The position numbers and the translations under genes were made by a program. A model generated the notes under the pieces. The model was not told the origin of the DNA. It was given only the letters and a program-made list of their open reading frames with translations, and searched no databases. Shown here piece by piece: positions 8,679 through 10,799 of a stretch of 64,000 nucleotides of DNA (position 1 is its first letter; the number at the start of each line of letters is the position of its first letter). The stretch is from Ignavibacteria bacterium (GTDB lineage Bacteria > Bacteroidota > Ignavibacteria > Tepidaquicellales > OLB5): NCBI GenBank assembly GCA_030835025.1, contig JAUQWS010000023.1, positions 62,001-126,000 on the forward strand. Reading direction: 5' to 3'.

Positions 8679-8683
8679 GATAA

Positions 8684-8837
8684 GTCCCCCTTATAAAGGG
8701 GGACAAGATTTTGAAGATTGGATTCGGTGCAATTGTTCGTGATTTAGATCCTTCCTGAATTTTAAATGGGGATTTGAATGCTAACAAATAGATTTTAGTT
8801 TTAAGAGTATTCGATGTTTTTATTTTATTAATCCCCC
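8684..8837. repeat. Palindromic repeat unit A (~150 bp)
   Basis: Starts with GTCCCCCTTATAAAGGGGGAC; shares TTGAAGATTGGATTCGGTGCAATTGT, GAATTTTAAATGGGGATTTGAATGCTAACAAAT and GTTTTAAGAGTATTC with units B/C. Confidence 0.85.
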
Positions 8838-8982
8838 TTATAAAGGGGGACGAGATTTTGAAGATTGGATTCGGTGCAATTGTACGTGATTTAAATTCTT
8901 CTTAAGTTTTAGATGGGGATTAGAAGACTGGCAAGTAATTTTGAGTTTTAAGTGTAAACATAGTTTCCAAATCCCCATTTCA
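8832..8982. repeat. Palindromic repeat unit B (~150 bp)
   Basis: Starts with TCCCCCTTATAAAGGGGGACGAGATTTTGAAGATTGGATTCGGTGCAATTGTACGTGATTTAAAT; ends AAATCCCCATTT, complementary to internal ATGGGGATT. Confidence 0.85.
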
Positions 8983-9041
8983 GATACATGAAGGTTGTAA
9001 CAAATATTTCAATAGAAGTATAATCACGATGAACATCTTCA

Positions 9042-9060
9042 TCCCCCTTTATAAGGGGGA
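9042..9060. repeat. Palindrome TCCCCCTTTATAAGGGGGA
   Basis: Same palindrome core as repeat units A/B/C, immediately upstream of the DUF559 gene. Confidence 0.8.
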
Positions 9061-9087
9061 CTATAAACCAGAATTTATTAGCATTTA

Positions 9088-9486
9088 ATGAATAAGCCAT
9101 ACATTCCGTATAATAAGAAACTGAAAGAGAATTCCGGAAAGCTAAGAAATGAATCGACTTTGGCTGAAGTGCTTTTATGGAACGAATTAAAGGCAAGTAA
9201 GCTTCGCGGGTACAAATTCAACAGGCAAAAACCAGTTGGGAATTTTATTGTTGATTTCTATTGTAAGAAGTTATCACTTGTGGTTGAAATTGATGGTGAT
9301 TCTCATGTTGGAAATGAGATGATGGATTATATTCGCTCCGGGAAAATTGAGAAACTTGGAGTTTTTGTCGTGAGATTTGATGACCATGCAGTTAAACAAG
9401 CAATGGAAACCGTCCTGAATAAATTGAATGACTTTATTGACAAATTTGAAAACGATACGTTAAGTGAATTTGTTGATTGGCAGTAA
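9088..9486 (+). CDS. DUF559 domain protein (very-short-patch-repair endonuclease-like)
   Basis: RNESTLAEVLLWNELKASKLRGYKFNRQKPVGNFIVDFYCKKLSLVVEIDGDSHVGNE...DYIRSGKIEKLGVFVVRFDD: classic DUF559/Vsr-like pattern. Confidence 0.93.
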   Translation: MNKPYIPYNKKLKENSGKLRNESTLAEVLLWNELKASKLRGYKFNRQKPVGNFIVDFYCKKLSLVVEIDGDSHVGNEMMDYIRSGKIEKLGVFVVRFDDHAVKQAMETVLNKLNDFIDKFENDTLSEFVDWQ

Positions 9487-9495
9487 GAGACATCA

Positions 9496-9645
9496 GTCCC
9501 CCTTGTAAAGGGGGACTACATTCTTGAAAATTGGATTCAGTACAATTGTACGAGATCTAAATCCTTCCTGAATTTTAAATGGGGATTTAAATGCTAACAA
9601 ATTTATATAAGTTTTAAGAGTATTCTTGGTTTTTCAAATCCCCTT
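9496..9645. repeat. Palindromic repeat unit C (~150 bp)
   Basis: GTCCCCCTTGTAAAGGGGGAC...TTGAAAATTGGATTCAGTACAATTGTACGAGAT...CTTCCTGAATTTTAAATGGGGATTTAAATGCTAACAAAT...GTTTTAAGAGTATTC; same order of blocks as unit A. Confidence 0.85.
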
Positions 9646-9708
9646 CTTTGATTTTCGATTAGTTAACATATTTCATAAATTATGGATATTGAGAATCCTG
9701 AAGCGATA

Positions 9709-9729
9709 CTCCCCCTTTACAAGGGGGAG
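9709..9729. repeat. Palindrome CTCCCCCTTTACAAGGGGGAG
   Basis: Fifth copy of the palindrome, closing the DUF559-containing region. Confidence 0.8.
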
Positions 9730-9833: not shown

Positions 9834-10799
9834 ATGAATACCTTTATTAAATTTATTTTTATTAGTTTGATATTTTTATTTATATTCGATTTTCTTTACT
9901 CACAAAATGAAATAATCCCTTATTTTGATATTCCCTCTTATTACACTGATCTTCCATCGGAGTTCAGAGAAGCCCCTTTCTATAAGCTCAAAAAAATAAA
10001 ATATTATGAAGTCCGGAAGATATATTCCGATGAAGGCTTAGGTTCTGGGTACCTTGAAGAAAGGAATTTTTACGATACAAACGGTATCCCTTTAAGTAAG
10101 ATAGGAATGAACTATGAAAGATACAGTACCGGTGGACATCATTTTGATCCAATATTTGATGTAGATTCGACTTTCTACAACATTAATAGAAATGGACATC
10201 TTGACAGCATGGTTTTATACTATCATTCTGGTTATATTTCTTCAGATGTATTTTTGTATGATATTGCAGGATTATGTATTAAATCAAAACATTATTCAGT
10301 TGATTCGTTAATCCGGACAATAGATTACGTTTATGACCAGAAAGGAAGATTAATTAATAAGGGCAATGTTGAATTTTTATTTGACAATGATAGAATAATT
10401 GAGATAGCAGAATACAATGAGAATAATTACCGAAATGTATTTTATGAATACATTTACGACAATAAGTCTTTTACATGTGAGGTATATAATACTAAAGGTA
10501 TGAAAGATAAATTAATAAATAGAATATACTTTAATGATAAATGGAAACAGTTAGTAAAGTATAAAATTAATGAAAACTATGACAGGGGTAAAGAAATAAC
10601 CCGAACATCATTTTCGTACGATCATGATGGCAAAATAAACAAAATTTTCGTTAGTAAAACGGAAAACAACATTTTTACTGATAGTTGGGAATATGAAATT
10701 GTTTTTGATTCAAAAGGAAATAGAATTGAGGAATATTTATATGACCGTTACGGAAACTTACTGTCAAAATATAAGTTCATCTACGAGTTTTACCAATAA
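9834..10799 (+). CDS. Hypothetical secreted protein with YD/RHS-like short repeats
   Basis: Signal peptide; repeated Y-D-x-x-G-x-hydrophobic pieces (YDQKGRLINKG, YDHDGKINKIF, YDRYGNLLSKY). Confidence 0.65.
   Translation: MNTFIKFIFISLIFLFIFDFLYSQNEIIPYFDIPSYYTDLPSEFREAPFYKLKKIKYYEVRKIYSDEGLGSGYLEERNFYDTNGIPLSKIGMNYERYSTGGHHFDPIFDVDSTFYNINRNGHLDSMVLYYHSGYISSDVFLYDIAGLCIKSKHYSVDSLIRTIDYVYDQKGRLINKGNVEFLFDNDRIIEIAEYNENNYRNVFYEYIYDNKSFTCEVYNTKGMKDKLINRIYFNDKWKQLVKYKINENYDRGKEITRTSFSYDHDGKINKIFVSKTENNIFTDSWEYEIVFDSKGNRIEEYLYDRYGNLLSKYKFIYEFYQ

What the first reader, a model, noticed from the sequence alone, without database searches (positions are those of the whole stretch)
8684..9729. DUF559 nuclease gene embedded in a family of structured palindromic repeats: candidate mobile element
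Five copies of a CCCCCTT-N3-AAGGGGG palindrome occur within ~1.05 kb. Three begin ~150 bp units sharing the same ordered blocks (GATTGGATTCGGTGCAATTGT, TTTTAAATGGGGATTTGAATGCTAACAAAT, TTTTAAGAGTATTC). Internal GGGGATT and terminal AATCCCC can pair, so each unit could fold into a two-stem structure. The only ORF inside is a Vsr-like DUF559 protein with repeat units on both sides. This resembles REP/RAYT logic (palindromic repeats plus a cognate nuclease), but with a restriction-fold nuclease instead of a tyrosine transposase.
Basis: partly seen in the sequence, partly recalled or inferred. Interest (0 to 1): 0.78.

Follow-up and report, generated by a model that had tools for sequence, protein, structure and literature searches.

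The report
Nuclease gene with cognate mobile palindromes
A small Vsr-like nuclease gene (DUF559) sits among copies of its own family of DNA palindromes, and the same pairing of nuclease and matching palindromes recurs across many bacterial phyla, E. coli included, which points to a widespread and apparently undescribed kind of mobile repeat that can even insert in frame inside protein genes.

Summary
In detail: five exact CCCCCTT-N3-AAGGGGG palindromes within 1.05 kb, none elsewhere in the window, bracket an intact DUF559 gene. The interpretation (REP/RAYT logic with a restriction-fold nuclease) is supported and extends far beyond this locus. Across 163 DUF559 loci from many phyla, pyrimidine-left palindromes occur at about 5/kb within 100 bp of the gene and 0.04-0.12/kb beyond 1 kb, often with the same arm on both sides. 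Palindrome type follows DUF559 clade. Genome-wide palindrome number tracks DUF559 number (rho 0.71) and only weakly RAYT number once DUF559 is controlled for; RAYT genes in the same genomes carry different palindromes. In 31 loci the module is joined in frame to a host gene (UvrC, LeuRS, HsdR, RecJ). Relatives show empty, palindrome-only and full states at the UvrC and LeuRS sites. E. coli ycjD has the same arrangement, and its repeat is present or absent between strains. The predicted fold matches homing endonuclease I-Bth0305I and Vsr, not a HUH transposase. Shown: association, co-variation, insertion polymorphism. Inferred: that DUF559 cuts the palindrome and drives its spread.

The parts
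8686..8702 (.). palindrome P1, CCCCCTTATAAAGGGGG (start of unit 1)
8686..8836 (+). unit 1: P1, GGGGATT (8768-8774), AATCCCC (8830-8836, fused into P2); right end truncated or shared with unit 2
8833..8849 (.). palindrome P2, CCCCCTTATAAAGGGGG
8833..9059 (+). unit 2, complete: P2, GATGGGGATT (core GGGGATT 8915-8921), AATCCCC (8970-8976), P3; ssDNA fold z = -6.0
9043..9059 (.). palindrome P3, CCCCCTTTATAAGGGGG, closes unit 2, 28 bp upstream of the DUF559 start
9088..9486 (+). DUF559 (PF04480) Vsr/EDxHD-fold nuclease gene, 132 aa; R20, E27, F44, R46, Q47, D56, F57, L64, E67, D69, G70, H73, D80 invariant among 17 relatives
9498..9514 (.). palindrome P4, CCCCCTTGTAAAGGGGG, opens unit 3
9498..9727 (+). 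unit 3, complete: P4, GGGGATT (9581-9587), AATCCCC (9637-9643), P5; ssDNA fold z = -4.4
9711..9727 (.). palindrome P5, CCCCCTTTACAAGGGGG, closes unit 3

Best explanation
The locus is a full-length copy of a mobile palindromic repeat together with its cognate nuclease. The repeat unit is two inverted halves, each carrying a C/T-rich to G/A-rich hairpin. DUF559 is a single-domain Vsr/EDxHD-type nuclease that most likely recognises the hairpin of its own family (as duplex, or extruded as single strand or cruciform) and cuts or nicks there. The broken ends are then copied or re-inserted with host repair enzymes, so that units spread as solo copies (non-autonomous, DUF559 supplied in trans) and sometimes as unit-DUF559-unit modules. 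The system works like REP/RAYT, with an unrelated nuclease in place of the HUH tyrosine transposase. Shown: physical association, family-specific pairing, palindrome load following DUF559 number, insertion polymorphism, in-frame insertion into host genes, conserved active-site residues. Inferred: cleavage of the palindrome by DUF559 and its causal role in spread. Unknown: the strand-transfer chemistry.
For: All three small DUF559 genes of this genome sit among palindromes of three different families. In 83 loci of relatives, pyrimidine-arm palindromes occur at 5.4/kb within 100 bp of DUF559 against 0.04-0.12/kb beyond 750 bp; 35 of 76 loci share the same 7-mer arm on both sides. In 80 loci found by a protein-motif scan (Chloroflexi, Cyanobacteria, Bacteroidota, Proteobacteria, Verrucomicrobia, Elusimicrobia, Patescibacteria and others): 5.2/kb against about 0.06/kb, and almost no purine-left palindromes. 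Palindrome type clusters on the DUF559 tree: 56 changes against 87 shuffled, 0 of 200 as low; a CCCCCCAG-type group spans Cyanobacteria, Chlorobiota and a relative of the window. The nearest relative in another genome shares the arm in 81% of cases against 35% background. Palindrome number against DUF559: rho 0.71, partial 0.64 given RAYT; RAYT given DUF559 0.21; 40 RAYT loci have different palindromes and none of the Y type within 100 bp. Empty, palindrome-only and full states at UvrC and LeuRS in one genus. In 31 of 163 loci DUF559 is inside or joined in frame to a longer ORF. E. coli ycjD has the tailed hairpin beside it; matches to that 51-mer occur 2-35 times per genome, and a 92-bp copy between pstA and pstB is absent from other strains with 98-99% identical flanks. 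Fold: NGO0050 (TM 0.85 by target) and the I-Bth0305I homing endonuclease catalytic domain (0.79).
Against: No biochemical or genetic evidence that any DUF559 protein binds or cuts its palindrome. About 19% of loci (27 of 145 with usable flanks) show no palindrome at the threshold used. Some genomes hold moderate palindrome numbers with no full-length DUF559 (G018: 28, G041: 16). A plasmid DUF559 of Parageobacillus has none. The window's site downstream of the aminotransferase also holds DUF559 in G012, G002 and G013, so this copy may be old rather than recently mobile. A hydrolytic nuclease alone does not explain insertion at unrelated sites. One 8-bp direct repeat is not proof of transposition.
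Confidence: 0.72

Rival explanations
1. DUF559 is a free-standing homing-type endonuclease whose target site is the palindrome. The palindromes spread by another agent, and DUF559 genes home into them, so they end up flanked by target sites.
For: The closest characterised fold is the homing endonuclease I-Bth0305I. At the UvrC site a palindrome unit without DUF559 (G002) and the full module (G005, G010, G008) lie at the same place, as expected if DUF559 entered an existing unit.
Against: No other agent is visible: RAYT genes have their own different palindromes and explain little of the palindrome number; G028 has no RAYT, 7 DUF559 and 322 palindromes. Family-specific pairing and the correlation of numbers are expected if DUF559 itself drives spread.
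Confidence: 0.15
2. The palindromes are REP sequences of RAYT/IS200-type transposases, and DUF559 is a passenger.
For: RAYT (PF01797) genes are common in these genomes (48 of 59), and RAYT logic is the known precedent (PMC3116915, PMC8266576).
Against: 0 pyrimidine-arm palindromes within 100 bp of 40 RAYT genes; RAYT genes have CGACCCCTnnnGGGGTCG, CCCACGGCTGAAGCCGTGGG and similar; partial correlation 0.21. GTAG foot in only 4 of 338 palindromes.
Confidence: 0.03
3. DUF559 is a housekeeping or defence nuclease that handles (resolves or removes) palindromes, and the palindromes are kept beside it as regulatory or terminator hairpins.
For: DUF559 folds like repair (Vsr) and restriction enzymes. 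In E. coli ycjD is a stable, single-copy gene in 3,366 of 5,426 genomes.
Against: Generic hairpins or terminators would not be restricted to one polarity (R-left almost absent), would not come in clade-specific sequences and inverted pairs, and would not be found with DUF559 in frame inside UvrC, LeuRS or RecJ.
Confidence: 0.06
4. Chance or shared-ancestry artefact: intergenic repeats that happen to surround this one gene.
For: The window's DUF559 is orthologous at the same site in three relatives, so that one locus counts once.
Against: The association is repeated in about 160 loci in many phyla, with distance, polarity and both-side identity all non-random.
Confidence: 0.02

Closest known systems
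REP/REPIN sequences with RAYT (TnpA-REP, PF01797)
   Same: Short palindromes, often as inverted pairs, enriched beside a cognate single-gene nuclease whose specificity differs from clade to clade; solo non-autonomous copies; occasional copies inside genes (PMC3116915, PMC8266576, PMC3733652).
   Different: The nuclease is a Vsr/EDxHD-type PD-(D/E)XK-superfamily fold, not HUH/Y1; no GTAG tag (4 of 338) but in many phyla a CCTCACCCC tail; pyrimidine-left arms only; whole gene module found in frame inside host genes.
EDxHD homing endonucleases (I-Bth0305I, PDB 3R3P)
   Same: Same catalytic fold by structure search (TM 0.79 by target) and detectable sequence similarity (E 3e-7).
   Different: No intron or intein seen; flanked by palindromic repeats; no additional DNA-binding domains.
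Rickettsia palindromic elements (RPE) and similar intragenic palindromes
   Same: Palindromic repeats inserted in frame in protein genes.
   Different: Here a nuclease gene travels with the repeats. Sequence relation to RPE not tested.
CGTC-tagged and untagged palindromic repeats (PMC3733652)
   Same: Small palindromic repeats without a known transposase. [quoted passage not shown]
   Different: This work proposes the partner protein for one large pyrimidine-arm class.
E. coli YcjD (DUF559, PRK09767)
   Same: DUF559 gene next to a tailed pyrimidine hairpin that is dispersed 2-35 times per genome.
   Different: Single stable copy; function unknown in the papers found (PMC1189080 treats it as a PD-(D/E)XK nuclease, PMC12817139 describes its exchange with eefRABCD). 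The repeat may be the old 'box C' family (recalled, not verified).

Membership tests
DUF559 / PF04480 proteins | Significant match to the profile over the whole domain | tested here: met
   E = 4.7e-30, positions 2-106 of 109
REP/RAYT system | HUH Y1 transposase (PF01797) | tested here: not met
   Only DUF559 and a weak MTES_1575 REase match; predicted fold matches NGO0050, I-Bth0305I and Vsr
REP/RAYT system | GTAG tetranucleotide at the foot of the palindrome | tested here: not met
   4 of 338 palindromes; caveat: the RAYT-linked palindromes of these genomes show it in only 1 of 51
REP/RAYT system | Cognate palindromes flank the nuclease gene and are dispersed in the genome, often as inverted pairs | tested here: met
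REP/RAYT system | Nuclease cleaves single-stranded cognate REP | not testable with these tools
   needs protein
EDxHD homing endonuclease | Vsr-like catalytic fold with conserved acidic residues and histidine | tested here: met
   TM 0.79 to 3R3P; invariant D56, E67, D69, H73, D80
EDxHD homing endonuclease | Encoded in a self-splicing intron or an intein | tested here: inconclusive
   In-frame inserts at UvrC and LeuRS read as repeats plus DUF559 only and the window copy is a free-standing ORF; no dedicated intron or intein search was run; Rfam gave no significant match
Insertion sequence or MITE | Terminal inverted repeats | tested here: met
   ACCTCACCCCC...GGGGGTGAGGT (UvrC insert) and AACCCCACC...GGTGGGGTT (LeuRS insert); long inverted halves in the window
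Insertion sequence or MITE | Target-site duplication | tested here: inconclusive
   8-bp ACACGGTT on both sides of the E. coli pstA-pstB insert, but the element's own end holds CACGGTT
Rickettsia palindromic elements | In-frame palindromic insert in protein genes | tested here: met
Rickettsia palindromic elements | Sequence relation to RPE families | not tested
   no RPE set was compared

The most novel reading that the evidence does not exclude
DUF559 proteins are the mobilising enzymes of a bacteria-wide class of palindromic mobile elements unrelated by descent to RAYT/REP. Each enzyme is matched to its own pyrimidine-hairpin family. The elements are built so that the whole module can be read through in frame inside essential genes, and E. 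coli YcjD with its dispersed tailed-hairpin repeat is a laboratory-accessible member.
Probability: 0.6. Interest if true: 0.93.

Novelty: new variant of a known kind. Interest (0 to 1): 0.85.

Why it matters
PMC3733652 left open whether untagged palindromic repeats are tied to specific proteins. Here one very common class is tied to DUF559, a family so far annotated only as a domain of unknown function or predicted nuclease. If true, it adds a second, independently evolved palindrome-plus-nuclease mobility system beside REP/RAYT. It also offers an explanation for C/T-rich hairpin repeats scattered through many phyla and for odd proline/glycine-rich inserts in conserved proteins such as UvrC and LeuRS. 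The existence of an E. coli K-12 member makes it directly testable with ordinary laboratory strains.

Tried and rejected
A first family-wide alignment was too diverse for the contig scan and a tighter set was used. Rfam: only a sub-threshold CRISPR-repeat match on a palindrome, taken as chance similarity of palindromes. PADLOC: weak match to a type II methyl-directed REase only; no defence-system context pursued. RAYT as mover: rejected by its own palindromes and the partial correlation. Chance hairpins or terminators: rejected by polarity and clade specificity. CGTC tag: 22 of 338 feet, no consistent motif. Using the E. coli ycjD presence/absence contrast as proof of drive was rejected: copy number is lower in some listed strains that seem to lack ycjD, but this is confounded by phylogroup. 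Element boundaries at UvrC could not be fixed to the base because the empty linkers are variable.

Full report
Observation. The five CCCCCTT-N3-AAGGGGG palindromes are exact and lie at 8686, 8833, 9043, 9498 and 9711. No other match exists in the window even with two mismatches, and shuffles give 0.08 on average. Three repeat copies of about 130 nt start at 8680, 8827 and 9493. The only clear gene among them is a 132-aa DUF559 ORF at 9088-9486 (PF04480, E = 4.7e-30). The complete unit is about 230 bp: outer palindrome, about 65 nt, GGGGATT, about 50 nt, AATCCCC, about 65 nt, outer palindrome (8833-9059 and 9498-9727). The halves are partly complementary to each other (40 nt, 78%), and as single-stranded DNA the two complete units fold better than all shuffles (z = -6.0 and -4.4).

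Own genome. The genome (3.03 Mb, 136 contigs) has three small DUF559 genes. Each sits among its own, different palindromes: CCCCTCCTTGNTAAGGAGGGG for L001, CCCCCTTNNNAAGGGGG for the window, CCCCCCTTCTCAGAAGAYGAAGGGGGG for L003. Units of the window type without any DUF559 gene lie elsewhere (L010, L011; half a unit in L008).

Association in relatives and across bacteria. In 83 DUF559 loci of 59 searched genomes, palindromes with a pyrimidine-rich left arm occur at 5.4/kb within 100 bp of the domain, 2.5/kb at 100-200 bp and 0.04-0.12/kb beyond 750 bp. 63 of 76 loci with flanks have at least one, and 35 have the same 7-mer arm on both sides. An independent scan by protein motif gave 80 loci from Chloroflexi, Cyanobacteria, Bacteroidota, Proteobacteria, Verrucomicrobia, Kiritimatiellae, Elusimicrobia, Spirochaetes, Patescibacteria and others: 5.2/kb within 100 bp against about 0.06/kb beyond 1.5 kb, 55 of 69 with at least one, and almost no palindromes of the opposite (purine-left) polarity at any distance. 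Named records of Pseudanabaena, Picosynechococcus, Neisseria gonorrhoeae, Sphingomonas, Photobacterium, Azospirillum, Sinorhizobium and Deinococcus show pyrimidine-arm palindromes near DUF559 as well; a Parageobacillus plasmid DUF559 does not.

Cognate pairing. The nearest DUF559 in another genome shares a palindrome-arm 7-mer in 81% of cases against 35% background, and the correlation of protein identity with arm sharing is not reached in 500 permutations. On a tree of 139 DUF559 domains, palindrome types need 56 changes against 87 for shuffled labels (0 of 200 as low). The group carrying CCCCCCAG-type palindromes contains Cyanobacteria, a Chlorobiota MAG and a relative of the window's class (short alignment, so deep forks are uncertain, and near-copies add to clustering). 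Twenty-seven per cent of palindromes, in 50 of 131 loci, carry a CCTCACCCC-like tail within 16 nt of the hairpin foot, against about 1% expected. The window's own CCCCCTT family lacks this tail.

Dosage and the RAYT control. Counting CCCCYYYN{2,8}RRRGGGG in 59 genomes gives Spearman 0.71 with DUF559 number; the reversed pattern gives 0.05; genomes without DUF559 have a median of 3. RAYT genes (PF01797) are also common, but 40 RAYT loci from the same genomes carry other palindromes and none of the pyrimidine type within 100 bp. Partial correlations are 0.64 for DUF559 given RAYT and 0.21 for RAYT given DUF559. G028 has 7 DUF559, no RAYT and 322 palindromes; G027 has 7 RAYT, no small DUF559 and none. 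This is a positive control for the method and it removes the simplest rival. Counts are not corrected for phylogeny.

Insertion states and in-frame modules. In one genus the UvrC linker is short in G012, G009, G000 and G006, carries a palindrome unit without DUF559 in G002, and carries unit-DUF559-unit in frame in G005, G010 and G008; flanking protein is up to 97-98% identical. In LeuRS the junction before VFTTRPDT is short in most genomes, holds a single hairpin in G012, shows likely remnants in G008, G009 and G004, and holds the full module in G007. Of 163 loci, 31 have an open frame that runs more than 110 aa beyond the DUF559 domain: 24 on both sides (UvrC, LeuRS, HsdR, HsdM and other methyltransferases, RecJ, UvrA, riboflavin synthase) and 7 on one side or cut by a contig end; 27 of the 31 have a pyrimidine palindrome nearby. 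The LeuRS junction is hit in G007, Chitinophaga and Leeuwenhoekiella, and probably Dokdonia. Host-gene identities were read from the sequences; they were not run through Pfam. Pure pyrimidine and purine arms contain no stop codons, which may explain why such inserts are tolerated; this is inference.

The window site itself. Downstream of the aminotransferase, DUF559 proteins 64-70% identical to the window's, with CCCCCTT palindromes, are also present in G012, G002 and G013. Seven other relatives have neither there, and G004 has a different palindrome family and no DUF559. So the locus varies between species, but this copy may be old.

E. coli. ycjD (DUF559) lies between fabI and sapF. A pyrimidine hairpin overlaps its 3' end, and about 165 bp further lies TTTTCCCCTCACCCTAACCCTCTCCCCAGAGGGGCGAGGGGA, the same tail-plus-hairpin layout. 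Matches to this 51-mer occur 2-35 times per genome (median 19) in 5,395 of 5,426 genomes (lenient threshold). ycjD is present in 3,366 genomes; in others the site holds an efflux operon (PMC12817139). At ppc-argE the allele with the repeat covers only 276 genomes. Between pstA and pstB a 92-bp insert is present in O157:H7 and K-12-type alleles and absent, with 98-99% identical flanks, in others; the insert is bracketed by ACACGGTT direct repeats. Because the element's end also contains CACGGTT, a target-site duplication is not proven, and direction (gain or loss) is not polarised.

Protein. AlphaFold2 gives pLDDT 90. The best solved structures are NGO0050 of N. gonorrhoeae (3HRL, no known function) and the catalytic domain of the homing endonuclease I-Bth0305I, then, more weakly, PvuRts1I and Vsr. 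Acidic residues and a histidine are invariant, so the genes seem kept as nucleases. EDxHD enzymes hydrolyse DNA with metal-bound water (PMC3943268), unlike the tyrosine chemistry of RAYT (PMC8266576). Strand transfer therefore probably needs host enzymes; this step is inferred and is the weakest part of the model.

Novelty. No paper in the library links DUF559 to palindromes; YcjD appears only as a PD-(D/E)XK family member and an unstudied ORF. PMC3733652 names the association of untagged palindromes with proteins as an open question. Most subscription papers were not searchable, so prior description cannot be ruled out. I rate it as a new variant of the palindrome-plus-nuclease kind, with a fair chance that it deserves a class of its own.

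Noticed in passing
L276 3196-3420 (E. coli K-12, ycjD-fabI): The E. coli repeat beside ycjD may be the old 'box C' family first seen near envM/fabI; this is from memory and was not verified.
   Followed up: partly
L123 2860-4250 (Neisseria gonorrhoeae): The DUF559 gene here reads as the protein of the solved but functionally unknown structure 3HRL (NGO0050) and lies beside a tandem array of CTCTCTCCC and CCCTCCCCC palindromes.
   Followed up: partly
L297-L336: RAYT-like PF01797 genes of this class have their own cognate palindromes (CGACCCCTnnnGGGGTCG, CCCACGGCTGAAGCCGTGGG, CCCCACC...GGTGGGG) and almost never a GTAG foot.
   Followed up: partly
LeuRS in G007 (L241), L199, L204, probably L163: The same LeuRS editing-domain junction has received DUF559 modules in several genera of at least two phyla.
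   Followed up: partly
L269 2100-2460 (reverse complement; G002): Some palindromes carry a nested insert, CTCCCC-ACTGTCAAAGCCAGTTCTTCGACTTTTCAAGGGGG.
   Followed up: no
G056, G055: The reversed, purine-left control pattern is unusually common in these two genomes (34 and 13 matches).
   Followed up: no
L004 (own genome C96): A DUF559-like match in a 1541-aa open frame, without flanking pyrimidine palindromes.
   Followed up: no
window 9834-10799: 321-aa ORF with a hydrophobic N-terminus and no Pfam match, next to the element.
   Followed up: no
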